Shown here one piece after another: positions 854 through 21,101 of a stretch of DNA of 64,000 nucleotides (position 1 is the first letter of the stretch; the number at the start of each line of letters is the position of its first letter). Made by a program: the position numbers and the translations under genes. Location: positions 62,001-126,000 of the forward strand of contig UEGR01000003.1 of NCBI GenBank assembly GCA_900465685.1, read 5' to 3'. The notes below the pieces were generated by a model. That model ran no database searches. It had not been told where the DNA came from and saw only the letters and a program-made list of their open reading frames with translations. This DNA comes from Hyphomicrobiales bacterium. Lineage in GTDB: Bacteria; Pseudomonadota; Alphaproteobacteria; Rhizobiales; Rhizobiaceae.

Positions 854-865
854 GGGAAACTACTC

Positions 866-3077: not shown

Positions 3078-3181
3078 ACCTATACAATATCGCTATAACT
3101 GTTCGTGCAAAAGGGTCGATGTAGAAACATTTTTGATAAGGCATAAAGCGGTTATCAATAACTCTTCAGGGGAGGCGAGCC
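3078..3181. promoter_or_regulatory. divergent promoter region with candidate LTTR operator
   Basis: The gap between the LysR gene and the catabolic operon contains a perfect 7-bp inverted repeat, TTGATAA (3133-3139) and TTATCAA (3152-3158), separated by 12 bp. A second, weaker dyad (TATA...CTATA) lies near 3090-3106, close to the LysR start. LTTRs bind dyads with a T-N11-A core in such divergent regions. The SD GGGGAGG (about 3169-3176) precedes the TTG start at 3182. Confidence 0.6.
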
Positions 3182-3742: not shown

Positions 3743-3747
3743 TTGAT

Positions 3748-4335
3748 ATGTCTCTTCCAACTTTTGACCGTCGCGCGGCTGTAAACAAACTCCTTGAAAA
3801 TCGAAATGGAGTTCTTGTCGTCACCGGTCTTGGATCGCCCAGTTACGATGTCCATGCTGCGGGGGATCGCGATGATAATTATTATCTATGGGGTGCAATG
3901 GGTGGGGCAGCGCTTGTCGGCCTTGGTCTTGCTCAAGCTCAGCCTGATAAACGAGTGATGGTGATTACAGGCGATGGCGAACAGCTGATGGCGTTTGGCG
4001 CATTAGCGACTATTGCTGTGGCTAGGCCCAGGAATCTTGACGTGATTGTCCTAGATAATCAACACTTTGGTGAAACAGGGATGCAAACCAGCCACACAGG
4101 ACGCGGCATTCAACTCGATAAAGTTGCCAATGCATGCGGGTTTGTGGAAACCGCTGAGTTGAGAAGTCTGGAAGAGGTGGATCAGTTGAGCCTTCGTTTA
4201 AGAAGCCAGCCAATTGGTCCGAGATTGTTCGTGTTGAAAATCACTGCGGAGAATTTGCCACGGTCGCTTCCTCCACGTGATGCAACGTTTATCAAGAACA
4301 GATTCAGGGCGCACCTAGGTTTGGCGACCTGTTAG
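3748..4335 (+). CDS. TPP-dependent 2-oxoacid decarboxylase, beta (PP-type) subunit
   Basis: 195 aa, ComE-like. The TPP/Mg2+ motif is seen as GDGEQLMAFGALATIA followed by LDVIVLDNQHFGETG, i.e. GDG followed by DN at the expected distance. The upstream segment NYYLWGAMGGAALVGLGLA is also typical of the PP domain. The start is the ATG at 3748, just after the alpha-subunit stop; the frame is open further upstream but only as overlap with the alpha gene. It should form an alpha/beta complex completing one decarboxylase active site at the interface. Odd point: no strong SD, consistent with translational coupling to the alpha subunit. Confidence 0.86.
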   Translation: MSLPTFDRRAAVNKLLENRNGVLVVTGLGSPSYDVHAAGDRDDNYYLWGAMGGAALVGLGLAQAQPDKRVMVITGDGEQLMAFGALATIAVARPRNLDVIVLDNQHFGETGMQTSHTGRGIQLDKVANACGFVETAELRSLEEVDQLSLRLRSQPIGPRLFVLKITAENLPRSLPPRDATFIKNRFRAHLGLATC

Positions 4336-4345
4336 GGAGGCTCTT

Positions 4346-5818: not shown

Positions 5819-5874
5819 CGTTGTATGGGCGTACTTCAAAGAATGAAAATAACGGAGCCGCCCAAGGAGGAAAA

Positions 5875-7047: not shown

Positions 7048-7069
7048 TTTGAATTGAAAGGAACTGGCT

Positions 7070-7846
7070 ATGAAGCTTTTAGACAGGGTTGCTATTGTTA
7101 CCGGTGCAGCGAAGGGCATTGGCAAAGCTTCCGCTATACGATTGTTGGCGGAAGGAGCCAAAGTTGTGATAGCGGACATAGACGCAAAGAGACTTGAGGA
7201 AACTGCAGCTGCCATCGGTACGCCTGAAACTCTTCATTATGTGATCACCGACGTCAGTAAAAAGGATGAGGTTGAAGCGCTGGTGAGCGCTGCCGTCGAA
7301 CGATTCGGGCGGTTGGACATAATGGTCAACAACGCGGGCATCGCACCTGTTAAAGATTTTCTTTCGATCACCAAGAAAGATTACGATCATGTGCTGAGTA
7401 TTAACCTGGAAGGCGCTTTCTGGGGGACGCAGGCCGCTGGTCGTCAAATGATCGCCCAAGGCGATGGCGGCGTGATAATCAATATGTCCTCGATCAACTC
7501 TGGGCTGGCTAATCCGAATGTTGCCACATATGCAATCAGCAAAGGTGGAATGAATCAGGTGACCGGAACTGCCGCTGTAGCATTCGCTCCACACGGTATT
7601 CGAGTCGTTGGAATTGGCCCTGGAACGATCGACACAGAGATGGTCCGTGGTGACTTTGTTTCGAGTGCCACCGATAAGGCAATTCTGGACCGCACTCCTC
7701 TCGGACGATATGGAACAGCCGATGAAATTGCGGCCGTTGTTGCATTTTTGGCGAGCGATGATGCTTCATATTTTACTGGGGAGACAATTTATCCCGACGG
7801 CGGTCGCCGCGTTTTGAACTACGTTATGCCAGAGAAGAAGAAATAA
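7070..7846 (+). CDS. short-chain dehydrogenase/reductase (SDR)
   Basis: 258 aa, classical SDR. Seen: the cofactor motif TGAAKGIGKASA (residues about 12-18), NNAGIAPV, the catalytic Ser in NMSSINSG and the YAISK catalytic pair (Tyr-x3-Lys), and the C-terminal GETIYPDGGRRVL. The acidic residue after beta-2 (VIADID) points to NAD+ preference. It has an ATG start after AAAGGAAC. It is the fifth gene of the operon, one base before the VOC gene. The likely role is oxidation or reduction of a hydroxyl/keto group on a pathway intermediate; substrate not deducible. Confidence 0.94.
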   Translation: MKLLDRVAIVTGAAKGIGKASAIRLLAEGAKVVIADIDAKRLEETAAAIGTPETLHYVITDVSKKDEVEALVSAAVERFGRLDIMVNNAGIAPVKDFLSITKKDYDHVLSINLEGAFWGTQAAGRQMIAQGDGGVIINMSSINSGLANPNVATYAISKGGMNQVTGTAAVAFAPHGIRVVGIGPGTIDTEMVRGDFVSSATDKAILDRTPLGRYGTADEIAAVVAFLASDDASYFTGETIYPDGGRRVLNYVMPEKKK

Positions 7847-7847
7847 G

Positions 7848-8294
7848 ATGGGAACGTTTGATAAACTGCACCACATCTGCATCGTCGTGTCAGATATAGA
7901 TGCTTCGCAAGCATGGTATGAAGCCATTGGCATTGGACCGTGGGAGGATTATCCTCCGCTCGTGGAGTATACGGATCTCAAAGTGCCTGACGAGAAGGGC
8001 TTCCATAACCTGATCTATCGGGTGTGCAACTTGCCGAACATTCAGTTCCAACTCTGCCAGCCGGACGATAATCCAAGTCCCCAGCGCAAGTTTCTTGATG
8101 AAAAAGGCGAGGGCGTTTTTCACGTCGGGTTTGAAGTAACGGATGCGAACGCCGCTGAAAAGGAAACGACGTCGAACGGATTGTCGATACTGATGCGTGG
8201 ACGACGGGCCAATGGCACTGGATTTACATATTATGATACTGCCGCTGATGGAGGTGTAAACCTCTTGACGCGTGCCACACCAAAGGCTGGTTAA
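7848..8294 (+). CDS. VOC-superfamily (glyoxalase/dioxygenase fold) protein
   Basis: 148 aa with two beta-alpha-beta-beta-beta modules. The first begins DKLHHICIVVSDIDASQAWY with a potential metal His; the second contains GVFHVGFEVTD with another His; the C-terminus has TYYDTAADGGVNLL. The pattern fits metal-dependent VOC enzymes such as methylmalonyl-CoA epimerase or glyoxalase-like lyases. Its start follows the SDR stop by one base, so it is translationally coupled. An epimerase or ring-opening/isomerase role in the pathway is possible, but no specific reaction can be assigned. Confidence 0.86.
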   Translation: MGTFDKLHHICIVVSDIDASQAWYEAIGIGPWEDYPPLVEYTDLKVPDEKGFHNLIYRVCNLPNIQFQLCQPDDNPSPQRKFLDEKGEGVFHVGFEVTDANAAEKETTSNGLSILMRGRRANGTGFTYYDTAADGGVNLLTRATPKAG

Positions 8295-8297
8295 ACT

Positions 8298-9062
8298 ATG
8301 CCGACAGCCATCGATCTGAATTCAGACCTGGGTGAGAGTTTCGGTCCCTGGAAAATGGGCGATGATGCAGCCATGCTCGAATTGGTGAGCAGCGCAAATA
8401 TCGCGTGTGGTGGTCATGCTGGTGATCCAACGACGATGTTTGAGACCGCCTTAATTGCCAAAGCTAAACAGGTGATAATTGGCGCGCATCCAGGATTCGC
8501 AGACCGTGAAGGGTTCGGAAGGCGTCTCATCAGATTGACCACTTCAGAAGTAGAGCAACTGATTGCAACGCAAATCGGCGCTTTGATGGGGGCGGCGGCA
8601 TTGGCAGGGGTTCCAGTTCGCTATGTAAAGCCCCACGGTGCGCTGGGAAACTGGGCGGCCGATGATCGATCGGTTGCCATCGCAATTACACGGGCAACGA
8701 AAGCTGTATCGAGAGAGTTGTCAGTCCTCGCAATATCTGGAACCGAGCTTGAATTTGCTTCGAAAGATGCAGGGCTGCAAACCTTCAGCGAGATTTTTGC
8801 GGATCGCGGATATTTGGAGAACGGACGGTTAGTACCGCGCTCTCAGGAAGGCGCGATGATCCACGACCCAGAGGCGGCGGCAAATCGTATTCTGGATTTT
8901 TTGGCTGAGGGAAAAATGCCCACAATTGAGGGTGGAAAAATTGACCTGGTAGCTCATTCCATCTGTGTTCATGGTGATAGTCCGAGTGCTTTGACTATGG
9001 CGAAGCACATCCGTTGCAAACTCGCCGCCGCAAACATCCGAACTCAATCGTTCTTGGCTTAA
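8298..9062 (+). CDS. pxpA: 5-oxoprolinase subunit A-like protein (LamB/YcsF family)
   Basis: 254 aa. The N-terminus IDLNSDLGESFGPWKMGDDA and SANIACGGHAGDP are the diagnostic LamB/YcsF blocks, followed by IIGAHPGFADREGFGRR, VRYVKPHGALGN, and the C-terminal HSICVHGDSPSAL. In bacteria PxpA works with PxpB and PxpC to open 5-oxoproline to glutamate with ATP. All three subunits are present here, with a DUF1330 gene between A and B. The setting in a catabolic operon raises the possibility that this copy acts on another lactam or cyclic amide. The start is 3 bases after the VOC stop. Confidence 0.93.
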   Translation: MPTAIDLNSDLGESFGPWKMGDDAAMLELVSSANIACGGHAGDPTTMFETALIAKAKQVIIGAHPGFADREGFGRRLIRLTTSEVEQLIATQIGALMGAAALAGVPVRYVKPHGALGNWAADDRSVAIAITRATKAVSRELSVLAISGTELEFASKDAGLQTFSEIFADRGYLENGRLVPRSQEGAMIHDPEAAANRILDFLAEGKMPTIEGGKIDLVAHSICVHGDSPSALTMAKHIRCKLAAANIRTQSFLA

Positions 9063-9079
9063 TAGGTGGAAATACAGCA

Positions 9080-9370
9080 ATGGCTAAGGGTTATCTGATT
9101 GCTCAAGTTACTGTTACAGATCCAGAGGCGTATGCTGAATACAGCAAAGCTGCGGGCGATTTGTTAAAGCGATGCGGAGCGCGGCTCATTATCAATCCAG
9201 ACACGTTAACTGTCGTGGAAGGATCGCCCAAAAACCGAACCGTTATTTTCGAGTTCGATAGCTTTTCACAAGCAAAATCGTTTTGGGATAGTACAGAGTA
9301 CGCAAAGGCAAAGGCTTTTCGTACAGGAGCAGCGGAGGCAGATTTCATGTTGGTCGAAGGCTTGGACTGA
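9080..9370 (+). CDS. DUF1330-family small protein
   Basis: 96 aa. MAKGYLIAQVTVTDPEAYAE and the C-terminal IFEFDSFSQAKSFWDSTEYA are typical of the DUF1330 ferredoxin-like (dimeric alpha-beta barrel) fold. The start chosen is the ATG at 9080 preceded by AGGTGGA; the frame is open upstream but that region overlaps pxpA. The function of the family is not established. Its placement between pxpA and pxpB suggests a small accessory or isomerase-like role in the same pathway. Confidence 0.85.
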   Translation: MAKGYLIAQVTVTDPEAYAEYSKAAGDLLKRCGARLIINPDTLTVVEGSPKNRTVIFEFDSFSQAKSFWDSTEYAKAKAFRTGAAEADFMLVEGLD

Positions 9371-9371
9371 A

Positions 9372-10076
9372 GTGTTCTTTCACCAATCACGGCCCCGAAT
9401 TTTCCCTCATTTCTCGCCAGCAGGAAGCCATTCTCTGTTGGTCGAATTCGGTGATGTAATCTGCAACGAAACGCATGAGCATGTCGTTTCTCTCGATAAA
9501 GCCTTAAGTACTGCGTCTATTTTCGGTTTTTTCGAAGCGGTGCCAGCTTATACAAGCCTACTGGTGAGATTCGATCCGCTTTTAACCGACCACGATATAA
9601 TCGAGAACGACGTTAGAAAGCTCATTCAATCTTCATCCCCCTCGATCCGCCCGAGAGAAAAGCGTGTCGTCGAAGTTTGTTACGATGCCGAATTCGCACC
9701 TGATCTTTCTGCGGTAGCAATGAAGACGGGTTTTTCTCGCGACGAGGTGATTGCTGCACACAGTTCGGCGGAATATGGCGTTTTCATGTATGGGTTCGCT
9801 CCGGGCTATGCATATCTGGCTGGAGTGCCCGAACAAATAAGACTTCCGCGAAAACAATCCGCCGTACGCGATATCCCAGCCGGAAGTGTTTTGATTGCAG
9901 GGCCCCAGTGCCTTGTTACCACAATGACTATGCCGACGGGTTGGTGGATAATTGGCCGCTCACCTACGAGAATTCTCGACAAGGATGGCGATAGACCGTT
10001 TCTGTTTGACGTTGGCGACGATGTCGTTTTCCGACGAATTAGTCGCGCAGATTTCGAAAAGAAGAGCAATCATTGA
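9372..10076 (+). CDS. pxpB: 5-oxoprolinase subunit B-like protein (KipI family)
   Basis: 234 aa with a GTG start one base after the DUF1330 stop. The N-terminal half carries HSLLVEFGDVICNETHEHVV and PAYTSLLVRFDP. The C-terminal cyclophilin-like half has YGVFMYGFAPGYAYLAGVPE, LPRKQSAVRDIPAGSVLIAG and TGWWIIGRSP, all hallmarks of the carboxyltransferase domain subdomain C/D (KipI/PxpB). It pairs with PxpC and acts with PxpA in ATP-dependent lactam hydrolysis. Its stop overlaps the start of pxpC by 4 bases (TTGA), so the two are coupled. Confidence 0.93.
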   Translation: MFFHQSRPRIFPHFSPAGSHSLLVEFGDVICNETHEHVVSLDKALSTASIFGFFEAVPAYTSLLVRFDPLLTDHDIIENDVRKLIQSSSPSIRPREKRVVEVCYDAEFAPDLSAVAMKTGFSRDEVIAAHSSAEYGVFMYGFAPGYAYLAGVPEQIRLPRKQSAVRDIPAGSVLIAGPQCLVTTMTMPTGWWIIGRSPTRILDKDGDRPFLFDVGDDVVFRRISRADFEKKSNH

Positions 10077-11056
10077 CCTCTGTAAAGATCGCCGTGAAAG
10101 CCTCTGGGCCTCTTATATCCATACAGGATGCTGGTCGTTCGGGATTTATGCGCTTCGGAGTTCCGAGTTCGGGCCCAATGGACAGACTATCTGCGGCTGC
10201 GGCAAATGCAGCGCTAGGAAACGAACAGAACAACCCTGTCATAGAAATCTCGACTGGTGGACTGGAACTGGAGTGTGTTACGGGCGAATTGACCTTTGCA
10301 ATCGCTGGCGGTGATTTCATCGTCGAGCATGCAGGCGAACGAAAGAGGTCGTGGATCGTCAGTACTCTTCGTCAAGGTGAAACCTTGGCGATAAAGCCCG
10401 GCTTTTGGGGGAACTGGACTTACCTCGCTTTCGCCGGGTTTATGGAAGCGGAGCCATGGCTGCAGAGCCACGCAACCCATGCATCATCCGGATTTGGAGG
10501 CGGGAAAATTGTGACGGGTAAGGCATTGATGATCGCGAACCCAGAAGTTCGTAAGTCGCGTGAAGGTTCCATATTTTTCCCTATATCGGCTCGACCATCA
10601 AATATTTTCCAAGTCATACTTGGGCCGCAAGATCGTTTTTTCTCGGATGCAACCATTCGGATGTTTTTCGAGAGCAGTTTCGAGGTCACCCCAGCGTACG
10701 ACCGGATGGGGATGAGGCTTAGAGGTCCCTTTATTAAGCCAATTGGTGAGTTAGATATCCCTTCAGAACCGATCGTTCGGGGCTCTATACAGATAGCTGG
10801 TGACGGCATCCCCACCGTGTTGCTTGCGGATCATCAAACCACAGGCGGATATCCGAAATTGGCGACGATGGTCGATGCCGACACTGATAGGATTGCACAA
10901 CTTCGGCCAAAGACAAAAATCGTGTTTAAGTTGGTGACGACGGAAGAAGCGAATGCTCATGCGAGGCGAACAGCCAATGGTATTCAGCACTATCTGGGCC
11001 TGATTGCTAATGCGGAACGCTCGAATTCAGATACGTGTGTGAGATCACGCGATTGA
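10073..11056 (+). CDS. pxpC: 5-oxoprolinase subunit C-like protein (KipA, biotin-dependent carboxyltransferase domain)
   Basis: 327 aa with a TTG start overlapping the pxpB stop. Typical blocks are GPLISIQDAGRSGFMRFGVP, SGPMDRLSAAAANAALGN, FAIAGGDF, and the C-terminal GDGIPTVLLADHQTTGGYPK. It forms the heteromer with PxpB; PxpA joins to complete ATP-dependent 5-oxoproline hydrolysis. It is the last enzyme gene of the operon, 45 bp before the AraC-type regulator. Family assignment is firm; the exact cyclic substrate in this cluster is an inference. Confidence 0.93.
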   Translation: MTSVKIAVKASGPLISIQDAGRSGFMRFGVPSSGPMDRLSAAAANAALGNEQNNPVIEISTGGLELECVTGELTFAIAGGDFIVEHAGERKRSWIVSTLRQGETLAIKPGFWGNWTYLAFAGFMEAEPWLQSHATHASSGFGGGKIVTGKALMIANPEVRKSREGSIFFPISARPSNIFQVILGPQDRFFSDATIRMFFESSFEVTPAYDRMGMRLRGPFIKPIGELDIPSEPIVRGSIQIAGDGIPTVLLADHQTTGGYPKLATMVDADTDRIAQLRPKTKIVFKLVTTEEANAHARRTANGIQHYLGLIANAERSNSDTCVRSRD

Positions 11057-11101
11057 CCTGCTCGCTACCGTGCATTGAAACGTTGATGGTGAACCGAAGA
11101 G

Positions 11102-11896
11102 ATGATGTCTCAATGTTTCGTATCTGACGCAGCAACGTTGGAAATGCCTTGGTCCATTCAATTTGAGGCCAATGATTTCAGTTCTGACGATTGCTTCGTC
11201 TCTCATCGGCATCTTTCCGGCCAGTTCAGTTATTCGGTGAACGGCGTTCTCGAACTTGATGTCGAAGGCTATACATTACTGGCTCCTCCCCAATTCGGTA
11301 TTTGGATTCCTTCAGAACGAATTCACTCCTCGCGTTCGCTAGCGGTGGGACGATGCGCTTCGATTCATGTCGCCGCCGAACTTTGCGAGGGCATGCCGTT
11401 GGAGGCTTGCACGCTCAGAATACCAACTATTGTAAAGGCAATCTCTGACGACCTGATCAGGCGGAACATTTCAGTTCCGTCTAACGAAAGGGATCAACGA
11501 TTAATGAACGTATTGATTGACCAATTGCAGTCAGAGGGGGCTTTGCAAAGTTACCTGCCAACAACAAGTGATCCGCTGCTTGCCCCTATGATCAGACGAT
11601 TGCAAAAAGATCCAGGAAATTGTGATACTTTGGCTGCATGGGCCGAACGGCTCAATACAGTCGAGCGCGTGTTAGCACACCGCTTTCGTGCCATTGTCGG
11701 AATTGGTTTTAATGAGTGGAGGCAGAGACTACGTTTTCTCAACGCATTAATGCTTCTACGCAAGGGTTTTTCAATTCAGGAAATATCTTCGCAACTTGGG
11801 TACAATACTCCCTCGTCGTTCATTTCCATGTTTCGTCGGCACGCAAACATGAGTCCCGATCAATATAGGCGAAATACGCAAGTAAATAGATTATAA
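11102..11896 (+). CDS. AraC-family transcriptional regulator
   Basis: 264 aa. The N-terminal cupin-like sensor contains LLAPPQFGIWIPSERIHSSR; the C-terminal double HTH is seen as LAAWAERLNTVERVLAHRFR and IQEISSQLGYNTPSSFISMF followed by HANMSPDQYRR. An ATG start is taken at 11102 (AGAG upstream; a second ATG follows immediately). It closes the catabolic operon, suggesting local control in addition to the divergent LysR. It is convergent with the HEPN-like gene, with only 24 bp between the stops. Confidence 0.93.
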   Translation: MMSQCFVSDAATLEMPWSIQFEANDFSSDDCFVSHRHLSGQFSYSVNGVLELDVEGYTLLAPPQFGIWIPSERIHSSRSLAVGRCASIHVAAELCEGMPLEACTLRIPTIVKAISDDLIRRNISVPSNERDQRLMNVLIDQLQSEGALQSYLPTTSDPLLAPMIRRLQKDPGNCDTLAAWAERLNTVERVLAHRFRAIVGIGFNEWRQRLRFLNALMLLRKGFSIQEISSQLGYNTPSSFISMFRRHANMSPDQYRRNTQVNRL

Positions 11897-11920
11897 GAAC
11901 GTGCTGTTTCGTTTTTAAAT

Positions 11921-12919
11921 TTAGTCGTTCCCTTCGTTTTGATATTCGCCGCACGAGTGACATCTACCTTCGTTGTTATCGTTGTGGTCGCCAATCACGT
12001 TTCCCTTGCAGCTGTCGTGACCGCATGGAAGCCGCTTAATGGTGAATGTTTTGCAACACATCGCGCATCGTAACCGTTCGTTATTATCGGATGATATAAA
12101 TGCCGTCTTTGAGGAATCGTCGTAGTTTTCAAACCACTTCGTCTTAGCGGCATCAACGCAATCAAAACAAAAATAACGGCGCTTCGATTTTGCGTCTCCA
12201 AATACTATTTTGAATTCTGACTTTGTGAAAAGTTCGATGTTGAATTTTTGTTCTTCCATCACAACCTCATGAACGGAAAACACCCTTCCATCAGCAAAGA
12301 ATGCAATCCGTTCCTGAGAAGCAAAAGTAACTCTATCTTTCAACCAGCTCCGCTGGGGCCATAACTCTGCATATATTGCTATCATTGATCGTAGTAGTTC
12401 GAAAGGATCAAGGCTCCTGTCACTGAGACCCAAGTGAACAAACCTGTTTCGAAACGCGCGAATGTCGGAATATGTCTGAACAAATCGGGCTGTAAGCTTA
12501 CGTGGGCAGAAATTATTTACAGCTGCGGGGAGGTCGACTGCGTCGATGGTGCGAAAATCTGAAAATGCCAAATCGCGCGTTGGTGCACTGCTAAGTTTCA
12601 AATCGTTTCCTATCAGTAGCAGATAAGGACTGACTTCACAGACCATTGCCTTCAAGGCGAGCTCATTCGAATGCTGCACCAAGGAGAATATTGATTGCAT
12701 TTCCGCTTGGGAAGCTTGGAGGTACTCCATCCATTCGTCATCCCACCCTGCAGAATCCAGGGGTCCGAACCCTTCGAACTCACGGCAGAAATCCGACCAG
12801 ATTTCAATTAGCGACGACCACGCCGAAAAATAAAGTCTGAGTGAGACGTCATTTAACTTCGCAGGAGTGGGCACATTAATTATCATAAAACGCTCGATAA
12901 ATTGCGAAGTAGTTGCCAA
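11921..12919 (-). CDS. HEPN-like protein with C-terminal zinc ribbons (unknown function)
   Basis: 332 aa, not recognised as a named family. The helical N-terminal half includes HSNELALKAMVCEVSPYLLL (about residues 83-102) and, at residues 157-162, RNRFVH, matching the RNxxxH motif of HEPN ribonuclease domains. The C-terminus is Cys-rich: CFDC, CAMC, CGHDSC and CHSCG pairs (residues about 255-325), consistent with two zinc ribbons that could bind nucleic acid or protein. The start is uncertain: a TTG is used here, no clear SD is seen, and the frame stays open about 25 codons upstream without an ATG or GTG. It neighbours other defence-type genes. RNase activity is inference from the motif only. 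Confidence 0.7.
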   Translation of the reverse strand: MATTSQFIERFMIINVPTPAKLNDVSLRLYFSAWSSLIEIWSDFCREFEGFGPLDSAGWDDEWMEYLQASQAEMQSIFSLVQHSNELALKAMVCEVSPYLLLIGNDLKLSSAPTRDLAFSDFRTIDAVDLPAAVNNFCPRKLTARFVQTYSDIRAFRNRFVHLGLSDRSLDPFELLRSMIAIYAELWPQRSWLKDRVTFASQERIAFFADGRVFSVHEVVMEEQKFNIELFTKSEFKIVFGDAKSKRRYFCFDCVDAAKTKWFENYDDSSKTAFISSDNNERLRCAMCCKTFTIKRLPCGHDSCKGNVIGDHNDNNEGRCHSCGEYQNEGND

Positions 12920-13059
12920 AAAGTGAGTATCTGCATCCGCGATGTATATGTCATAAGATACATATTGCTCCGTCGCAAAAAGTTGGTGGTCAGTTTAACA
13001 GGACCTTGGATGTACTGAGATATCTCAAGGATTGAATAGAAAATGCGGATGCGTCTGTT

Positions 13060-14238
13060 CTAAACGCATGCGATCGGATCAACTGAATTCAAGCGATAAA
13101 GCACGTACCAGGTTGCCGCCACGCCAATCCAAGCCACCGCTGCAATGGAAAACAAAACGATCTTGTGCATGAATACCCGACCATTCAACTTGTCAAAAAG
13201 CGAGATGAACTGTTCAGCGATAAGCGCGTATTGCGCTTTAAGTTTTTCTTTCTGTCGCGTGAGATCGCTGTTGATGCTGGTAAGGGTCATAATCTGGTTG
13301 AAAATGGCAAGTGTTAAAAACGCAGCGAAAAGAGTTGCTCCGATTGCGATCATTGTATTGGTCCAGAATTCATTTCCGCACGTCGTAATTTTTTTCAACT
13401 GAACTGCGACAATGACGGTTGCCAATGGAACGCCAAGTATCTGGTTTTGTATATCGTGAAACGTTTTGTGAATTTTATTGGCGTATTCGCTGATTGCCTC
13501 TTCTGTTTTACTTTTAATTTTCTCATAAGAGAATTCCGAGGCAAAGAGATTATAGCCCTCTTGCGCGTCATTCAGAATTCTCCTTATATTCTTAACAATG
13601 TAACGGAAACGATCCGCCTCCGGGATGTCTTTACAAAATTCGAATAAAACGGAGGACAAAATAGTTGATTTTTGATCCTTATGAATTTTTTCAAGTACGA
13701 AGCGTTCGAGCTCGTCCACATCAAAAGTATTTAGCGTCAATAAATCTTTCGAAGAGTAATTGATCGGCAGCTTCAGCTTATTTTTTCCGAAGAATACAGC
13801 CTCAGCTTCGGAGTAATCCACAAAAGCGGCTACATTTGAAAGTGACTTCACAAGTCTTAAGGTGAGCCGATATTTACTTACGGAATCGGGTACCCTACCA
13901 TCATTATAGGCAAATCGTTCCTCAAGAAGATACCAGCGTGACGGCTCGCGAAGTCGATAATCCGGAGTGTTAATTATTTCAGTCAAGCTTTCAGCACGAA
14001 CACCCAAACCTGTTCTTGGAGCCCAAACGTCAGCTTCGACAAACGCGCCAATTGCCAAATCCGTTTGACTGCTATCAATATGAATTTGAGAATCGTTAAG
14101 TGCTTTTTGATCTGTTAAAATGAGGTTTAATGTTGCAAGCATTGATGCGTCTGCAATGCGCAAACGCCATCGCCCATCGGCTTGTAATTCCGAATTCTTG
14201 TATATCGGTATTAATTGGTCGAAGGTAATACTCGGCAT
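13060..14238 (-). CDS. membrane-anchored protein of unknown function, partner of NA37-like gene
   Basis: 392 aa, family not recognised. Residues 1-260 look soluble and mixed alpha/beta. The C-terminal third holds hydrophobic segments near 268-282 (weak), 296-320 (NTMIAIGATLFAAFLTLAIF) and 360-383 (VLFSIAAVAWIGVAATWYVL). A Lys/Glu-rich probable coiled coil (DLTRQKEKLKAQYALIAEQF) lies between the last two. It starts with ATG one base after the stop of the YejK/NA37-like gene, so the two are almost certainly one operon. A membrane effector or sensor paired with a DNA-binding protein is the obvious reading, but this is inference. Confidence 0.75.
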   Translation of the reverse strand: MPSITFDQLIPIYKNSELQADGRWRLRIADASMLATLNLILTDQKALNDSQIHIDSSQTDLAIGAFVEADVWAPRTGLGVRAESLTEIINTPDYRLREPSRWYLLEERFAYNDGRVPDSVSKYRLTLRLVKSLSNVAAFVDYSEAEAVFFGKNKLKLPINYSSKDLLTLNTFDVDELERFVLEKIHKDQKSTILSSVLFEFCKDIPEADRFRYIVKNIRRILNDAQEGYNLFASEFSYEKIKSKTEEAISEYANKIHKTFHDIQNQILGVPLATVIVAVQLKKITTCGNEFWTNTMIAIGATLFAAFLTLAIFNQIMTLTSINSDLTRQKEKLKAQYALIAEQFISLFDKLNGRVFMHKIVLFSIAAVAWIGVAATWYVLYRLNSVDPIACV

Positions 14239-14239
14239 T

Positions 14240-15241
14240 TTATTCTTGTTCGCGTTCGAGTTCTTCGATTAAGTCTGCAGGCAAATCTCTAATCAGTATA
14301 GTCTTTTTTTCGCCGTTATAGACGATCTTCTTCTGGGCGAGTGCACTTCGATCGAATTCTATTCGCCAGTGTTGCGTCTTCGCCCGGAATTTGACGAGTG
14401 TTTTAAGAACCCGATCGTTCGGAATGAATCCATCTGAGAGCCCCTGTTCCTGAACCAGAGCTAATGCTAAATCATTTGGATTTTCTGGGAACAATTCATT
14501 CGAAAATACCTCGAAATCGATGGGAGACCCTGACCGAATGTGTCTTTCGCAGATCTCAAAGGCCTTTTTCAGAAATTTCTCTTTATCTTTAACGATGCCA
14601 TTGGTCGGATCTGAAAAGTCTCGCAAAATGCGAATTAAAGTCTTGGTATCCTCTTGGTCTTGAACGGCAGTATCACATCCCAGAAATTCCTTGAAATATT
14701 CCGCTACGTTGCCTTTTCCTTTCAAGAAACCGATGTAACGGTCGGCTCCTGCAAGCCAGGCGGTAATGTTCACACGACCCGCAAATCGGAAACCGCTTAA
14801 ATCCAGATGCTTGATATCGGCAATGTCCAAATCATTTGTAAGTGCCGCACCTAGTTTCTCAGTGATAATTGCGACCAACAGGTAGACCTGTTTATCTTTC
14901 TCAATATGAGCAAAGAGCACGTGTCCGCCCGTGGAACCCGACTTTAGCTTTGCTTGATAAGCCAATGTGTCCATTAGCTTCTTAGTAATTTCAGAGAAGT
15001 TATTATAGTTATTGTCTTTCAAATTTTTTATGAACGTTTGTGCTGGATAGTTCTCTATCGGCTCAGAAAACTTCCCATGAGCTTTTGCTGATTTACTCGC
15101 ATAGAGCCCGTGGATCTCGGTCACAACGCGAACTACTGTTTTGGACAGCTTTAGCTTTTTCTTGCCGATTTTAATTTCGAAGTTGCCTAAATCATTCCGC
15201 CGCAAACCATGTAATGCGACTTGAATTATTTTATCTGCCAT
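14240..15241 (-). CDS. YejK/NA37-family nucleoid-associated protein
   Basis: 333 aa, the usual length for this family (E. coli YejK is about 335). Matching landmarks are IIQVALHGLRRND at the N-terminus, TEIHGLYASKSAKAHGKFSE, VYLLVAIITEKLGAALT, HLDLSGFRFAGRVNITAW, RYIGFLKGKGNVAEYFKEFL, and a C-terminal WRIEFDRSAL strand. YejK binds DNA and is nucleoid-associated; its precise role is unclear. An ATG start is chosen behind GGGGGTAGATTCT; a GTG five codons upstream is also in frame. It is the first gene of a two-gene operon with a membrane-anchored protein, a context unlike housekeeping yejK and within a defence-like cluster. Confidence 0.85.
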   Translation of the reverse strand: MADKIIQVALHGLRRNDLGNFEIKIGKKKLKLSKTVVRVVTEIHGLYASKSAKAHGKFSEPIENYPAQTFIKNLKDNNYNNFSEITKKLMDTLAYQAKLKSGSTGGHVLFAHIEKDKQVYLLVAIITEKLGAALTNDLDIADIKHLDLSGFRFAGRVNITAWLAGADRYIGFLKGKGNVAEYFKEFLGCDTAVQDQEDTKTLIRILRDFSDPTNGIVKDKEKFLKKAFEICERHIRSGSPIDFEVFSNELFPENPNDLALALVQEQGLSDGFIPNDRVLKTLVKFRAKTQHWRIEFDRSALAQKKIVYNGEKKTILIRDLPADLIEELEREQE

Positions 15242-15474
15242 AGAATCTACCCCCACAAATGCCAGCTTCTTGCGTTTCTGAATTCATTCTTGCAAAAATT
15301 CAAGGCGTAATGGTTCTAGATATCTGTTCCTGTGATCAAGGGGCTGGAAGTTGACCGAACGTGTCAGTGGACGCGTAATTGAATAAACTTCCCTATTTTG
15401 CCATCCGCCCAAAAACCGTGTCCCTTGCAACAAAGCAAGCGATCATTGCCTGAGTTTAACTCAGGGAGGACACT
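15242..15474. promoter_or_regulatory. divergent intergenic region
   Basis: 233 bp between the NA37-like gene (leftward) and an orphan gene (rightward), so it must hold both promoters. The SD for the rightward gene is CAGGGAGG just before 15475. No clear operator dyad was seen. Confidence 0.4.
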
Positions 15475-16008
15475 ATGGAACTGGAATGGGATATTTTTGG
15501 AGAAGATGCACAGATAATTCTTGATGCCGAAATACCGGTTGTGCAGGGAGAGGCTTATTTCTCTAGCCTGAAATATCGGGACAGCATGTATCGCGTTTCT
15601 AGGTTGCGGATTTTGGACTTAGATACTGAATTTGCTTATTCCGTTTTTGGGTATTTTGAATTGACGGATGCCATCAACTTGGCGATGAAATTGCCTCCTG
15701 CCAGAGCCGAGTTGGACGGTTTACGTTTATCTTGTACGGAGACGAGCACGGTCGAACTGGGCGAACTAGGCAGACATTATGGAAGATACTGTGTCGGAAA
15801 TCACCTGTACCGTGTGGAGCATTCCGGACAAACTGACATTCCTGTCGGGACACTTTTTGAGCATTTGGGTCTTGGGATAAGGCCGTGTGATCCCGCACAG
15901 GCAACTAGAGCTGAATTCGATGAACATGCTGCCTTGAGAGCCAGAGATGCACCGGTAGAGCCAGAGAGCCGTAGTCTCGGGTTGCCAGATGGTCCGCGCT
16001 GTTTATAG
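15475..16008 (+). CDS. hypothetical protein
   Basis: 177 aa, not recognised. It has a strong ribosome-binding site (GGGAGGACACT before ATG). The first 80 residues are acidic and strand-rich (MELEWDIFGEDAQIILDAEI). A middle part contains GRYCVGNHLYRVEHSGQTD. The last 40 residues are low-complexity and Ala/Arg/Glu-rich. No signal peptide or membrane segment is visible. It stands alone on the plus strand, convergent with the phosphatase gene, inside the defence-like segment. Confidence 0.6.
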   Translation: MELEWDIFGEDAQIILDAEIPVVQGEAYFSSLKYRDSMYRVSRLRILDLDTEFAYSVFGYFELTDAINLAMKLPPARAELDGLRLSCTETSTVELGELGRHYGRYCVGNHLYRVEHSGQTDIPVGTLFEHLGLGIRPCDPAQATRAEFDEHAALRARDAPVEPESRSLGLPDGPRCL

Positions 16009-16059
16009 CCTTGGCTACCGGGAAATTCCAAGCAAACGCCATATACCGATATTTTGAGG

Positions 16060-16779
16060 CTACGGAGAAACGGTTAACATCGTTTCACGTTCGCCATTTA
16101 TCACTTTCAATGCACTTAGCCTTCCAGACACGTATGCGCCGCTGTCGAGGTTGATACGGTTGGGATGGCGCTCAGGTTGGAAATTGTCGGTTATGGTGTG
16201 ACCGTGAACCACTGTGTATCCGTGGTCGCCTTCAAAATCGAGAAACCCTTCTCTGATCCAGCGAAGATCTTTTTCTTTCTGCTCCGCTATCGTGACCCCA
16301 GGTCGAATGCCTGCGTGAACGAAAAGGTATTGACCTTCGATCACATAGCTGACGGATTCTTTTAGGGCTCTTAAATGGCGTGGATAGAGCTCTTCGAATT
16401 CATCCAAGATTAAACTGGAATTCTCATAACCGAGGAACGAGTACGAGCAAAATGTAGTGTCGCCGCCCTGCTTCTTCCAATGTTCCAGCACGCGGTCACT
16501 GTTTTCATCGCACGCCAAAACTCTGAGCAGTAATTCTTCATGGTTTCCCTGGATCAAAAAACTGCCGGGGAGAGTGTCAAGTGTATGGCAGACCAATTCC
16601 ATGGCGGCGCGACTATTGGAGCCGCGATCAATTATATCGCCCAGGAAGATGACCCGATACGGCTCTCCGTCAGCATCTGCCTCGATCGTTGATAGCATTT
16701 TCTGCAGTAGATCGGCGCAACCGTGTACATCGCCGATGGCGTACGTAAGTTTCAAGATGGCCCCCAATATGCTAGGCAT
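16060..16779 (-). CDS. metallophosphoesterase (PP2A/ApaH-like serine/threonine phosphatase)
   Basis: About 239 aa. All PPP-family metal motifs are present: YAIGDVHGCADLLQ, FLGDIIDRGSNSR, IQGNHEELLL, FVHAGIRPG and VVHGHT. It resembles bacterial phosphatases of the PrpA/ApaH type, which dephosphorylate proteins or nucleotides in the cytoplasm. The open frame extends to 17031, but that part does not look like the family. The start is the ATG at 16777-16779, or a TTG at 16755 that has GGGGG 5 nt upstream and gives the typical MKLTYAIGDVHG N-terminus. Confidence 0.9.
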   Translation of the reverse strand: MPSILGAILKLTYAIGDVHGCADLLQKMLSTIEADADGEPYRVIFLGDIIDRGSNSRAAMELVCHTLDTLPGSFLIQGNHEELLLRVLACDENSDRVLEHWKKQGGDTTFCSYSFLGYENSSLILDEFEELYPRHLRALKESVSYVIEGQYLFVHAGIRPGVTIAEQKEKDLRWIREGFLDFEGDHGYTVVHGHTITDNFQPERHPNRINLDSGAYVSGRLSALKVINGERETMLTVSP

Positions 16780-17131
16780 CCTGTGCCTACTCAGTAATCG
16801 CAATTGAGAGCATTGAGAGAGATAGACCAAGACGTCAAGGCTTCGACGCAATTGAAGCATGCGTATCGCTCCTGAGTTGCCAGCGATTCTTGACGGTATG
16901 AGCTCAATGGGGGATAGCTTGACCACCGGGATATCCGAAGTAGTTGATCTATAACTGTTTTGAGGAATTGCGGAGAAAGACGTGAAACAGGGTGCGAATT
17001 TTTCTGTGAGCATTAGGCTCGCTCGCATCATGGGTGAAATTTATCGCACCAGAGAGGGACTTGCCGGAAAAACAAAAGACATAGCTGGAAAATGACCAAG
17101 AACGCGCTCAGTGAGATGGCAATTATAACAA
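16780..17131. other. intergenic region, divergent
   Basis: 352 bp between the phosphatase gene (leftward) and the DUF4238 gene (rightward). The minus-strand frame is open through most of it, but the translation does not resemble the phosphatase family and no good SD supports an earlier start. Presumably it holds two promoters; no operator-like repeat was identified. Confidence 0.4.
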
Positions 17132-18007
17132 ATGTCCATGCAACAGGCCCCGAAACGACATCACTTTGTACCAAAGATGCTTCAAAAGCACTTCCTTACT
17201 GACGACGGCGGGTTATGGGCATATGACCATCGACGTACGGAACAAAAAGTATGGTATGGGAAACCCGATAATCTGTTTTTGCGAGGGCACCTATACAGTC
17301 ATTTAAACGGGGACGGCAGCAAGGATGCGGAGTTGGAAACTCAATTTAGCCGATTGGAATCCGCCACCGCGCCAATTATCGATAAAATATTAGCTGCGGC
17401 AAGGATGTGGAGGACGCCACAGCTAACCGTATCTGAACGAGCGAACTGGGATCTGTTTCTCTACCAGCAATTTCGACGCGTACCTGATTTTTATGCATCG
17501 CTTCTCACCGAGGAGCAGCATAAAGGGACGGTCGAAGCCCATATCGATACGTTCCACAGGAAAGTCCGACCGGTAACCAATAAAGAGCGCAGCGATACGC
17601 TAGATCCATCAAATCTTGAAAAATTATATCGCAATCTTAGAGTTTCATCACTTAAATCAATCAGCAGGAATGTTTTAGAGACTATAGCAGGCCGAGGGCT
17701 CGCGGTCTGTCGCGTACCCAACCCGAAGAAATCGTTCATCTTGGGCAGTCGTCCGGTGATAAAACTGACGCCGCCTGAAACAAACGACCTCTGTAACCCG
17801 CGTGTGGAATTATGGCTTGCAGTCGCGCCAGATGTCATGATTGGGGTCGGACCGTTGGATGAACGTGAGATCATTGTCGACATCAACGATAGAAATCTCC
17901 GACTGTTGAACGAAGCCGTCGCTGCACAGAGTTCGCAGATTGTTGGTCGCTCAATGCTTTTGGTTGCATCGCTTGCGCCGCATGTTGGTCGCAAGATTGG
18001 AAAATGA
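17132..18007 (+). CDS. DUF4238 family protein
   Basis: 291 aa. The N-terminal KRHHFVPKMLQKHFLTDDG is the hallmark of DUF4238, followed by LWAYDHRRTEQKVWYGKPDN and the helical NWDLFLYQQFRRVPDF. The C-terminal half contains SFILGSRPVIKL and ELWLAVAPDVMIGVGP, the family's second conserved part. Biochemical function is unknown; such genes are common in accessory and defence-rich regions. The start is the first ATG (17132); a second lies two codons later, and no strong SD is visible. Confidence 0.82.
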   Translation: MSMQQAPKRHHFVPKMLQKHFLTDDGGLWAYDHRRTEQKVWYGKPDNLFLRGHLYSHLNGDGSKDAELETQFSRLESATAPIIDKILAAARMWRTPQLTVSERANWDLFLYQQFRRVPDFYASLLTEEQHKGTVEAHIDTFHRKVRPVTNKERSDTLDPSNLEKLYRNLRVSSLKSISRNVLETIAGRGLAVCRVPNPKKSFILGSRPVIKLTPPETNDLCNPRVELWLAVAPDVMIGVGPLDEREIIVDINDRNLRLLNEAVAAQSSQIVGRSMLLVASLAPHVGRKIGK

Positions 18008-18204
18008 TGACAACAACGAATTATCCTACTATGGTCCAATAAAAAGCAGTCACAAATGTGCGACGCACATGATGCCGTCAGTTCCCTCGGGAAGGAATTC
18101 AACTGCCAGAATGCGCTAGTTGTTAGTTTGTGATAATCGCTAGCTGCCTTTAAGGCCAAAGAGACTCTAGGGACATCGCGCGTCAGTCGGCGTTGGTTGG
18201 ATCT

Positions 18205-20526
18205 TCACGCTCCACTCATGGCTCTGGCCACCTCAAGCTGACCTTTGGCATATTTTTCCACGATTCGGACCGCTTCATCACACGCATCACGCAGTTCGTC
18301 CGGACTAGGAGTCTCATCGTAATAAGTACCATGAGACAGATTATTGATGAGGACGCTCTTGATCTCGAAGCCTTCTTCTCCCGCGAGATAACTTATGTAG
18401 TTTGACAGACTGTCACATTTATCAGGGTGGCAGAAGCGACCTACGGCTTCCAAAACGCAACGTATAGCGTGCCCTGTCGTATGAGAAGGTTCTGCTCCGT
18501 GATGTACGTTGACTATCTCCCGCAGATGCTCTTCGAAGGGGGCGACGTACTTCTTCAGCTTTGACAACTGGTGAGAAGCCCCGGTCTTATACAGGAAAAA
18601 GGCGGCTTCATCTTTGATGACTCGGTTCGTGACGCAGATATTGTAGAAATAGCTACTATGGGTAAAGACCAAAAGATCAGGTCTCAGGTGGCCTTTTTTT
18701 ATATCCGCTGGATTGATCGAGACTTCGCCTATCGAAGAAATGCTCAAGTGCTTAAGCGTCTGTGCAATAGCAAAGACATAGTCATAAGACATGGATGTAA
18801 TCGGATCATCGAACACCAGAAAAATTTTTGCGTAGTCGGAGGTCGCTTTTACTTTCTTATGAACACACGCGATAAAATAGCAGAAGGCGATCACAGTCTT
18901 TTCGCCGTCACTCAGGGTTCTGCTTGGCCCTCGCGCCATCTCGCGATTTTCTCGCCGAAGAGTGAATGATGCTTTGTCGAAAGTATATTTATGACCGAAG
19001 AAGCTAGTCACGAGGGCTTCGAATGTCGCAGCGACCCGGTCGCGAGCGCTATCCGAAAGTTGAGATTTCTTAAGCGAAGCGAGGTCTTCCGAGGCTAGTC
19101 GCACATCACCCTCTCGTGCTCGAATAGCTTCGAATGAAGTCCAGTTTGATCGCACAAAGTCGATAACGAAAACAGAGCAAGCTTCCCGATGAAGATTTCG
19201 CCGTTCAGTGTCAGAAGCTTTGATCGCCATCGCCAGTGCGGAGAACGTTTTATTGATCTCATCGATCATTGTATGCAGTGTCTGGAATAAGGAAAGCGGA
19301 TCACCTGTTGGAAGGACGACTTCCTTGCTTGGGTTTCTTCCCTTCTGCTCAATGGTATCAGCCAATTCACCCAGATATTTGTCTATAGCCTCGATTTGGG
19401 TTGAAAGATTGGGTACTGAAACGCTCGCTTGTGACGGTACCAACTTCCTTAACCGGTCGTATTTGATTAGGTTTCTGGCTACAGACCTTTCACATTGAGA
19501 AAGGGCATCTCTAAGGCCTTTAATCCACGTCCAATCTTTGCGAAGTGCTGCTTTATGCCCACCTTCTGCATCTGCATAGAAAGCTATGTACGAGGCGATT
19601 AGGTCTTTGGCGGGCGGGTGCACGATGGATTGTTCACAGAAAGGGCAGCAATCGTGCGCATCCTTCTGAATGATGTCGACTCCAGTTTCGATAAACTCAG
19701 GGTTCGCGGCGATCTTGGATTTGATTTCGTCGGCAACTGTCGAGGGAGAGGTGATCTTAGCGATATTTTCGGAGGTGGCATTTAAAAACGCGGGGTCGAA
19801 AAGCGGTTTGCTTATATCATCCGGATAGTCAGGTTCGGCGGGGACGCTTTTGAGTCTATCAAGATCGTTTAGAACATCCCCGAAAGATCGCGCAGCCTGC
19901 TCTGGTAAAGTTGTGTGCGTCGTTAAAAGGGTGGCCAAGTCTATGTCGCCGTATTCTCTGAGGCGCTTATTTACGCTAGCCTTCGAAGCGAGTTGCTGGT
20001 CTTTGAGCTGTAGCGTTCGCTGTTCTAGCCGTTCTCTTATTTCTTTCAAATGAGATTCCGCCCGCGCCAGAGTCTCCTCTGCATCCTTGGTGCTGATTAT
20101 CGACTGGTCTAGGCTTATTTTGCTCTCGATATTGCCGTTGACGACAAAATTTGATTGTCGAAGTTCGGCGTGAACGAAATCATCGGAGAAGACATGGAAA
20201 ATGCGGTCGCTGACGTCGGGAGTGACCCGCGATGTAGTTGAGCTCAATGTGAGTTTGCAGATATTGATGCCGCCCCGCGAAAGCTCGAAAAAACCATCTC
20301 CGTTCGTGGATTCTTCGGCAAGGAGATTAATCAGCGCGTCTTGGATATCTTCGCCATCCCCGTGAAGGTCAAGGTACCTGAGTGCACGAGTAAGAAATGA
20401 TTTCCCCGTACCGTTTCGGGCATAAACTAGGTTTTGAGCATGCTTACTTAGGTCAGCATCTAAACTACCGACAGGGCCGAGCCAATTAGCTCGCATGTGA
20501 AGACATGCCTTTGGCGCAGACGACAT
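18205..20526 (-). CDS. AAA_13-type ATPase with CxxC hook (RloC/Rad50-like architecture)
   Basis: 773 aa. The Walker A is ARNGTGKSF (residues 36-44). Long helical arms flank a CPFCEQ motif (about residues 292-297), resembling a zinc hook. The ABC-like signature TLSDGEKTVIAFCYFIA (near 540) is followed by Walker B LVFDDPITSMS (near 568) and an H-loop in FTHSSYFYN (near 622). The C-terminal 150 residues contain HGAEPSHTTGH and NNLSHGTYYDE. Length and layout match RloC/PrrC-like ATPases, some of which carry anticodon nuclease domains; that activity is not proven here. An ATG start follows GGGGGTGATTCTA; an in-frame ATG exists five codons earlier. Confidence 0.85.
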   Translation of the reverse strand: MSSAPKACLHMRANWLGPVGSLDADLSKHAQNLVYARNGTGKSFLTRALRYLDLHGDGEDIQDALINLLAEESTNGDGFFELSRGGINICKLTLSSTTSRVTPDVSDRIFHVFSDDFVHAELRQSNFVVNGNIESKISLDQSIISTKDAEETLARAESHLKEIRERLEQRTLQLKDQQLASKASVNKRLREYGDIDLATLLTTHTTLPEQAARSFGDVLNDLDRLKSVPAEPDYPDDISKPLFDPAFLNATSENIAKITSPSTVADEIKSKIAANPEFIETGVDIIQKDAHDCCPFCEQSIVHPPAKDLIASYIAFYADAEGGHKAALRKDWTWIKGLRDALSQCERSVARNLIKYDRLRKLVPSQASVSVPNLSTQIEAIDKYLGELADTIEQKGRNPSKEVVLPTGDPLSLFQTLHTMIDEINKTFSALAMAIKASDTERRNLHREACSVFVIDFVRSNWTSFEAIRAREGDVRLASEDLASLKKSQLSDSARDRVAATFEALVTSFFGHKYTFDKASFTLRRENREMARGPSRTLSDGEKTVIAFCYFIACVHKKVKATSDYAKIFLVFDDPITSMSYDYVFAIAQTLKHLSISSIGEVSINPADIKKGHLRPDLLVFTHSSYFYNICVTNRVIKDEAAFFLYKTGASHQLSKLKKYVAPFEEHLREIVNVHHGAEPSHTTGHAIRCVLEAVGRFCHPDKCDSLSNYISYLAGEEGFEIKSVLINNLSHGTYYDETPSPDELRDACDEAVRIVEKYAKGQLEVARAMSGA

Positions 20527-21101
20527 TAGAATCACCCCCATTATTTATAGGCTAACAAGGGTGCGGCTAACCGTCTATTAATGAAAACGATGCCGAGTTT
20601 ATGGTAGCCGATATAATTTGGCCATGAGTTTTCGAGTGCAATCGCAATATCGAACTTCACCGACACGCCCGTAGATCGCGAAGTAGAACTGTTGAATGCA
20701 AACGGTCTGCTTCCCGTTAATTCGATGATTTTCCCGAACTGGACAAATCAAATGCAACGAAATGCCCATACCAAGGCGCAGGGGGACAAACCACGGCGGC
20801 GTTTACACAAAGGCGGATGGCAGACATCTGCTCACAGCTCGCGAAATTTTGACGTTTACGGAAACGTCAAACTGCGCTAGTTTTGAGTCCGAACTGGTCC
20901 GGCTCGACCCGAGTTTGGGTTGAGGCTGGCCAGAATGCTGCAAAAATGGCAGGTTTTCGAGCGAGAACGTCCTTTTTTGTTGCAACATATCGGCTGTCAC
21001 GATGTTTTTCTAATAAAGCAGGCAGCAGGTGTGAAACGCGGTTTGGAGCCGGTATCCGTCTATCGCGGGGCTGGCTCAGGTGATGAATTTGGAGGATTTT
21101 G
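20527..21101. other. island/core junction and regulatory region
   Basis: 575 bp with no convincing gene. The left part is AT-rich like the accessory region; base composition becomes core-like towards the right. No tRNA, integrase or direct repeat was seen. It contains the perfect palindrome at 20849-20870 and the SD GGAGG before the acyl-CoA dehydrogenase gene. Confidence 0.6.
20849..20870. promoter_or_regulatory. perfect palindromic operator upstream of the beta-oxidation operon
   Basis: TTGACGTTT (20849-20857), 4-nt spacer ACGG, AAACGTCAA (20862-20870): 9-bp perfect arms. TTGACG itself resembles a -35 hexamer. The pattern resembles MerR-type sites described for regulators of fatty acid and branched-chain amino acid catabolism in proteobacteria (LiuR-like). 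Regulator identity is an inference; the dyad itself is certain. Confidence 0.7.

What the first reader, a model, noticed from the sequence alone, without database searches (positions are those of the whole stretch)
13060..15241. Two-gene operon: NA37/YejK-like DNA-binding protein plus membrane-anchored partner
The genes are one base apart. The first clearly belongs to the YejK/NA37 nucleoid-associated family, the second is a new protein with C-terminal membrane segments. A membrane partner joined to a DNA-binding protein recalls the logic of the Kiwa defence system (membrane KwaA with DNA-binding KwaB), but the proteins are not recognisably the same. I judge this the best candidate for an undescribed anti-phage or anti-plasmid system in the window.
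Basis: partly seen in the sequence, partly recalled or inferred. Interest (0 to 1): 0.8.

Follow-up and report, generated by a model that had tools for sequence, protein, structure and literature searches.

The report
DNA-binding and membrane protein phage-defence pair
Two back-to-back genes encode a DNA-binding protein and a membrane protein that travel together on viruses and mobile DNA of many bacteria; they are distant relatives of a recently reported anti-virus gene pair of E. coli whose way of working is still unknown.

Summary
In detail: on the minus strand an NA37/YejK-family gene (15241..14240) is followed one base later by a 392-aa protein with C-terminal membrane segments (14238..13060). 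The pair is not undescribed. Both proteins hit NCBIfam's DS1_1/DS1_2 antiphage models (E 6e-18, 2e-14), which mark a pair in E. coli lambdoid prophages; I infer this is the YejK system validated in the 2026 DefensePredictor paper. The window pair is divergent (16-17% identity), far below both equivalog cut-offs, and lacks the E. coli zinc ribbon. The partner family has NA37 directly upstream in 55 of 56 genome loci and 53 of 54 viral contigs; both exceptions are contig ends. Flanking genes include restriction, Zorya, Septu and AbiE genes; in viruses often repressors, Q and lysis genes. In the window it lies on a recently transferred island of at least 82 kb. The partner's most conserved part is a helix entering the membrane. 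Kiwa: no sequence-profile relation, but KwaB is the best solved structure after YejK (weak). Most likely mechanism, inferred only: membrane-held DNA binding; main rival: a RexAB-like DNA sensor with a membrane-damaging effector.

The parts
14240..15241 (-). NA37/YejK-family DNA-binding protein, 333 aa, first gene of the pair
   Evidence: PF04245 8.4e-63; NF053868 DS1_1 6.3e-18, 64.9 bits vs cut-off 330; phrog_3767 3.8e-78; AlphaFold2 pLDDT 90.0; best solved relative YejK 9be2
13060..14238 (-). membrane partner, 392 aa, second gene
   Evidence: NF053869 DS1_2 2.4e-14, 53.3 bits vs cut-off 315; phrog_5023 7.9e-71; AlphaFold2 pLDDT 94.0
13693..14238 (-). partner residues 1-182: variable alpha/beta N-terminal domain, presumably cytoplasmic
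   Evidence: mean column entropy 2.74 (1-112) and 2.67 (113-182) bits; DSSP of model
13396..13587 (-). partner residues 218-281: long stalk helix and membrane-entry segment, the most conserved part (F236, S237, Q264, P271 invariant in 52 rows)
   Evidence: entropy 1.81 (218-262) and 1.13 (263-281) bits; invariants; same residues in E. coli DS1_2
13300..13362 (-). partner residues 293-313: transmembrane segment
   Evidence: family hydropathy peak 2.37
13168..13299 (-). partner residues 314-357: helical loop with conserved N314, Q315, R354
   Evidence: mean 7.4 K/R and 6.2 D/E per sequence
13099..13167 (-). partner residues 358-380: last transmembrane segment
   Evidence: family hydropathy peak 2.14
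11921..20541 (.). lower-G+C accessory cluster around the pair: unknown protein with cysteine-rich tail (11921-12919 -), metallophosphatase (16060-17031 -), DUF4238 protein (17132-18007 +), PDC-S06 candidate defence ATPase (18205-20541 -)
   Evidence: PDLC04898 3.3e-120; G+C 0.42-0.49 from 12 to 21 kb against 0.57-0.61 for the next kilobases to the right
1..20885 (.). right part of a transferred island of at least 82 kb that continues to the left end of the contig; right end about 20,824-20,885
   Evidence: 99.7-99.99% identity to Ochrobactrum chromiisoli inside, about 85% outside; fetched stretches of three relatives match only from 20,824-20,839 on

Best explanation
The pair is a divergent member of the family of DS-1 (NA37 + membrane protein), an anti-phage system carried by prophages and mobile islands. 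Shown: near-obligate pairing, close gene coupling, DNA-binding family of gene 1, membrane segments in gene 2, mobile context. Inferred: the two proteins form a complex in which the partner's conserved stalk and membrane-entry segment sits in the inner membrane and its variable N-terminal domain holds the NA37 protein there. When a phage injects or replicates its DNA near the membrane, the NA37 protein loads on that DNA without cutting it and blocks its replication or expression, while the chromosome is spared because the binder is kept at the membrane. That is the working logic of Kiwa, with different proteins. Identity as a DS-1-like anti-phage pair: about 0.8 (lowered from 0.85 on recheck, because the neighbour control is less clean than I first wrote). 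The mechanism as stated: about 0.4.
For: Homology to DS1_1/DS1_2 and to phrog_5023 over nearly the full length of both the window and E. coli partners. Pairing 55 of 56 and 53 of 54. Genes overlap or lie a few bases apart in most loci. Paired trees correlate, r 0.92 against at most 0.29 in 1000 shuffles. NA37 by itself is usually solo (4 of 25 NA37 genes recognised in a 150-genome sample have the partner), so the partner defines the system. No enzyme family in either protein in Pfam, which fits binding without cutting. Flanking genes include type I and III restriction-modification, Zorya, Septu, AbiE and Cas genes; none of these kinds was among the control matches. Best non-YejK solved structure for NA37 is KwaB. 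Kiwa's mechanism as summarised in PMC12904381 (passages).
Against: No complex was predicted or shown. The KwaB match is weak (TM 0.23, rmsd 16) and the profile test is negative. The most conserved residues lie in the membrane-entry segment, more than a passive tether needs. NA37 proteins of the family are mostly acidic (median net charge -9 of 56; window +5). The E. coli pair that carries the DS1 names is only 16-17% identical. In the one close relative with the island the partner gene is interrupted. In the neighbour control, generic ATPase models (mad3, mad8, AriA) matched up to 8 of 120 control genes, so the share of genes with any PADLOC match may not differ; the difference is in the kind of system.
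Confidence: 0.42

Rival explanations
1. RexAB-like abortive infection: the NA37 protein senses phage DNA or a phage nucleoprotein complex and switches the partner, whose conserved kinked membrane helix opens a pore or depolarises the membrane, so the infected cell stops before phage release.
For: The least variable part of the partner is its membrane-entry segment with invariant Q264 and P271, and N294, N314, Q315, R354 are conserved. DNA-binding gene first and membrane gene second, carried by lambdoid prophages, is also the layout of lambda rexAB (recalled, not tested).
Against: No significant match of the partner to solved structures or to BFVD models. No toxicity or leakage data. RexA and RexB were not compared here.
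Confidence: 0.33
2. Not defence: a gene pair of mobile elements that organises or regulates the element's own DNA, for instance by anchoring it to the membrane, as ICE-borne NdpA2 counters MvaT silencing in PAPI-1.
For: A YejK-family protein on a mobile element can regulate transfer (PMC8565334, passages). The pair is found on an island, plasmids and phages.
Against: NCBIfam names the E. coli homologues antiphage proteins, and a YejK-domain system was validated against phages (PMC13092281, section 5). It travels in unrelated kinds of element. Some flanking genes are defence genes.
Confidence: 0.1
3. A relic: the pair descends from a defence system but no longer protects in this lineage.
For: Only 2 of 35 genomes of the genus hold the partner (own and G003), and in the other holder it is interrupted.
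Against: Both window genes are open; the partner is 48-52% identical over nearly its full length to partners of a Rhizobium, a Rhizobiales isolate and Mesorhizobium and the NA37 protein 59-68%, so selection has probably kept them.
Confidence: 0.1

Closest known systems
DS-1 of E. coli prophages (NCBIfam NF053868/NF053869; inferred to be the YejK system of DefensePredictor, PMC13092281)
   Same: Gene order, NA37 first then membrane partner; partner in the same PHROG over nearly full length; F-S-K-KI-Q-L-P positions kept
   Different: 16-17% identity; window scores 64.9 and 53.3 bits against cut-offs 330 and 315; E. coli NA37 has an N-terminal zinc ribbon, not seen in the other 55 examined; prophage versus a large catabolic island
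Kiwa (KwaA membrane, KwaB DNA-binding; PF16162)
   Same: Two genes, one membrane protein and one DNA-binding protein; KwaB is the best structural match to the NA37 model after YejK
   Different: Order reversed in the nine loci whose KwaA I aligned; no profile relation for either protein; KwaA is a small membrane protein, the partner has a large soluble N-terminal domain
Housekeeping YejK (NF001557, PDB 9be2)
   Same: Same NA37 family (E 1.7e-54)
   Different: 185.3 bits against cut-off 341; mostly a solo gene elsewhere; the window genome has no other NA37 match
RexAB of phage lambda
   Same: Prophage-borne DNA-binding plus membrane protein (recalled)
   Different: No sequence or structure comparison made here

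Membership tests
DS-1 (NCBIfam equivalogs) | scores above the curated equivalog cut-offs (330 and 315 bits) | tested here: not met
   64.9 and 53.3 bits; hence filed as DS-1-like, not as a DS-1 equivalog
DS-1 (NCBIfam equivalogs) | significant similarity of both proteins to DS1_1 and DS1_2, adjacent and in that order | tested here: met
   E 6.3e-18 and 2.4e-14, one base apart
DS-1 (NCBIfam equivalogs) | zinc ribbon before NA37 | tested here: not met
   pattern found in 1 of 56 NA37 proteins, E. coli only; some of the 56 were cut at an assumed start
DS-1 (NCBIfam equivalogs) | protects against phages | not testable with these tools
   needs plating assays
NA37 family (PF04245) | profile above gathering score | tested here: met
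   213.2 bits against 24.6
Kiwa | KwaB (PF16162) profile in the DNA-binding protein | tested here: not met
   no PF16162 hit up to E 0.1; hhalign 0.3%
Kiwa | KwaA-like membrane protein | tested here: not met
   hhalign 1.2%
Kiwa | KwaB fold | tested here: inconclusive
   Foldseek E 8.9e-3, prob 0.69, TM 0.23; another chain prob 0.28; second aligner unavailable
YejK housekeeping equivalog | NF001557 cut-off | tested here: not met
   185.3 against 341 bits
RexAB | homology to RexA/RexB | not tested
   comparison recalled only

The most novel reading that the evidence does not exclude
NA37 and KwaB share an ancestral fold, so Kiwa and the DS-1-like pairs are two branches of one class of membrane-held nucleoid-protein immunity. 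In the DS-1 branch a new membrane-protein architecture, with an invariant kinked membrane-entry helix, takes the place of KwaA, and the class is a widespread cargo of temperate phages.
Probability: 0.22. Interest if true: 0.75.

Novelty: new variant of a known kind. Interest (0 to 1): 0.48.

Why it matters
Nucleoid-associated proteins are thought of as housekeeping. Here one is welded to a membrane protein and traded between phages, plasmids and islands across Alpha-, Beta- and Gammaproteobacteria. The E. coli member is annotated as antiphage, but the main-text sections I read give no mechanism for it. The family alignment points at a short membrane-entry segment as the functional core, which can be tested directly by mutation, and leaves two clearly separable mechanisms.

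Tried and rejected
'Undescribed system' was rejected after the NCBIfam hits. Membership of Kiwa was rejected on sequence; the fold relation is left open. A housekeeping YejK was rejected (only NA37 match in the genome; recently transferred island). An enzyme: no Pfam family in the window proteins beyond NA37 except marginal hits. Partner fold: no significant match in PDB or BFVD, nor by sequence in PDB (best E 0.14). A tree of paired and solo NA37 proteins did not separate the two sets (weak supports), so I claim no single origin. Promoter and terminator scans gave about what shuffles give. No tRNA on the stretches scanned. The search with the window partner alone found only the own genome among 385 of its class, so reach depends on the profile: 10 of 398 with NF053869, 12 of 398 with A1, two of these marginal and partial, own genome included in both.

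The neighbour comparison is qualitative. 97 and 96 flanking genes matched 204 and 158 PADLOC families, 120 control genes 8, but many models fit one protein, the tool gives no count of matched proteins, only the first 25 families are shown, and nearly all shown rows count a single gene. Controls are 20 mid-contig stretches of other genomes, not matched places. Dropped before the count: 6 of 56 loci (one contig edge, five that looked like copies by their scores) and 1 of 194 genes (over 1200 aa).

Papers: PMC13092281 sections 5, 7 and 15 and passages; PMC12904381, PMC13190303, PMC8565334, PMC12409358 and PMC12715929 passages only; the Kiwa Cell paper and the Gamma-Mobile-Trio paper are not held, so I could not check whether the latter also uses a 'DS-1' name. 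Searches for NA37/YejK defence in print; in their listings I saw no such paper other than PMC13092281. Supplements were not open to me, so the link between DS1 and the YejK system rests on the list order in section 5, the ZF and TM labels in the legend, and the E. coli gene.

The structural re-alignment (pdb_via) was never available, and a complex of the two proteins could not be modelled.

Full report
WHAT IS THERE. On the minus strand, 15241..14240 encodes a 333-aa NA37/YejK protein (PF04245, E 8.4e-63), and 14238..13060 a 392-aa protein; one base separates them.

IT IS A KNOWN KIND. NCBIfam gives the first protein DS1_1_antiphage (E 6.3e-18) and the second DS1_2_antiphage (E 2.4e-14). Both are far under the equivalog cut-offs (64.9 of 330, 53.3 of 315 bits). 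In E. coli the models fit a pair between the Q antiterminator and the holin of lambdoid prophages. DNA of that pair is in 105 of 5426 complete E. coli genomes at 99% identity or more, and RefSeq calls the genes 'nucleoid-associated anti-phage protein' and 'anti-phage protein' in some of the rows shown. PMC13092281 (sections 5, 7, 15) validates 42 of 94 tested units, names them DS, and lists a YejK nucleoid-associated domain first among newly validated domains, with ZF and TM labels in the figure legend. The E. coli NA37 has an N-terminal zinc ribbon. I infer that this is DS-1; the sections read do not say so in words and give no mechanism for it.

THE FAMILY. One genome-contig scan with a five-row partner alignment found 56 loci, from Rhizobium, Mesorhizobium, Paraburkholderia, Cupriavidus, Aeromonas, Pectobacterium, Acinetobacter, Pseudomonas and others, some of them near-identical copies. 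NA37 lies directly upstream in 55 of 56; the exception begins at a contig end. Gene ends mostly overlap or lie within a few bases. A viral-contig scan gave 54 loci, 53 with NA37 upstream; the exception is again cut by a contig end. In the phylum sample, NF053869 matched 10 of 398 genomes including the own one; of the nine others eight have NA37 beside it and one is at a contig edge. Conversely NA37 is mostly solo: a 150-genome sample gave 26 NA37 matches, of which my profile recognised 25 (one a fragment), and 4 of these 25, the window's included, have the partner. Distances of NA37 and partner across 56 pairs correlate at r 0.92, at most 0.29 in 1000 shuffles; shared descent of hosts also adds to this.

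ANATOMY. AlphaFold2 gives confident models of both (pLDDT 94.0 and 90.0). The partner has an alpha/beta N-terminal domain, a 50-residue helix (218-267), a break before P271, a helix to 280, two long helices (289-336, 338-383) and hydrophobic peaks near 263-285, 293-313 and 358-380. The loop 314-357 carries a mean of 7.4 K/R and 6.2 D/E, the short loop 282-291 1.4 of each. By the positive-inside rule this leans to three membrane passes with the N-domain and loop 314-357 inside, but it is weak, so topology is inference. Conservation is uneven: about 2.7 bits of entropy in residues 1-182, 1.81 in 218-262 and 1.13 in 263-281. F236, S237, Q264 and P271 are invariant in 52 rows and are kept in the E. 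coli protein. The partner has no significant match in PDB by sequence or fold, nor in BFVD.

CONTEXT. In the window the pair lies with a PDC-S06 candidate defence ATPase (3.3e-120), a DUF4238 protein and a metallophosphatase in a stretch of lower G+C. From the contig's left end to about 20,850 the DNA is 99.7-99.99% identical to two contigs of Ochrobactrum chromiisoli, while DNA to the right is about 85% identical; stretches of three relatives match only from 20,824-20,839 on. So an island of at least 82 kb moved recently; its left 62 kb carry catabolic genes (DMSP lyase, proline racemase, transporters). In O. chromiisoli a multi-copy element, probably an insertion sequence, interrupts the partner gene at the position of window 13855-13859. 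Only 2 of 35 genomes of the genus have the partner.

Around 50 family loci, 193 flanking genes were scanned against PADLOC in two sets: 97 genes matched 204 families and 96 genes 158 families at 1e-10. Among those shown are type I and III restriction-modification, type II methyltransferases, Zorya, Septu, AbiE and Cas models, nearly all on one gene each. The 120 control genes matched 8 families, none of these kinds: mad3 on 8 genes, mad8 on 5, AriA on 3, others on 1. Because many models fit one protein, the counts of families overstate the contrast, and the share of genes with any match may be similar. I read it only as: hallmark defence genes occur beside the pair and did not occur in the control. 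In viral contigs, 147 flanking genes of 39 distinct loci match transcriptional regulators and repressors, Q antiterminators, HNH nucleases, endolysins, holins and tail proteins most often (first 25 of 141 families). Several of these are usual places of lysogenic-conversion genes (established knowledge). Deposited phages (7 records) and plasmids (6 records) carry partner relatives too.

KIWA. Profile comparison gives nothing (NA37-KwaB 0.3%, partner-KwaA 1.2%, from 10 KwaB and 9 KwaA sequences). Yet Foldseek ranks KwaB 9mtn second after YejK for the NA37 model (E 8.9e-3, prob 0.69; another chain prob 0.28), with poor overall superposition. The second aligner was never available. I keep it as a lead.

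MECHANISM. Two models fit. (A) Kiwa-like: the partner holds the DNA binder at the inner membrane, where phage DNA enters; binding stops replication or expression. (B) RexAB-like: DNA binding by NA37 triggers the partner's membrane segment to open or damage the membrane. For A: two-part layout, no enzyme signature, the KwaB lead. For B: the membrane-entry segment is the most conserved part of the partner. I lean slightly to A (0.42 against 0.33). Everything about action is inferred; I know of no assay of this pair.

VERDICT. The finding is real: an intact, divergent DS-1-like pair, not a new system. Its worth is that it shows how broad and phage-borne the family is and where its conserved core lies.

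Noticed in passing
L117 (G000:C13, 28130-28684, minus): The window's genome also carries a KwaB (PF16162) gene preceded by a KwaA-like membrane gene, so a Kiwa-like pair coexists with the NA37 pair on another contig.
   Followed up: partly
window 18205-20541: AAA_13/PrrC-like protein matching PADLOC candidate PDC-S06 at 3.3e-120 at the right end of the island.
   Followed up: no
window 11921-12919: Protein without any Pfam, PADLOC or NCBIfam match at the limits used, with a C-terminal cysteine-rich (zinc-ribbon-like) tail, downstream of the pair.
   Followed up: no
window 17132-18007: DUF4238 protein; a DUF4238 protein is also among the flanking genes of another family locus.
   Followed up: no
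L106/L107, homologous to window 13855-13859: In O. chromiisoli the partner gene is interrupted by a multi-copy element (one other 100% copy and diverged copies in that genome), with a 5-base overlap of the two flanks like a target duplication.
   Followed up: partly
L128, L129, L110 (left of the window): The same island carries DMSP lyase, proline racemases, betaine-type transporters and ETF genes: a catabolic island with a defence-like cluster at one end.
   Followed up: no
L036 and other family loci: Partner lengths run from about 340 to 470 aa (two 316-aa entries are open pieces only); some, such as L036, have long extra C-terminal tails of unknown meaning.
   Followed up: no
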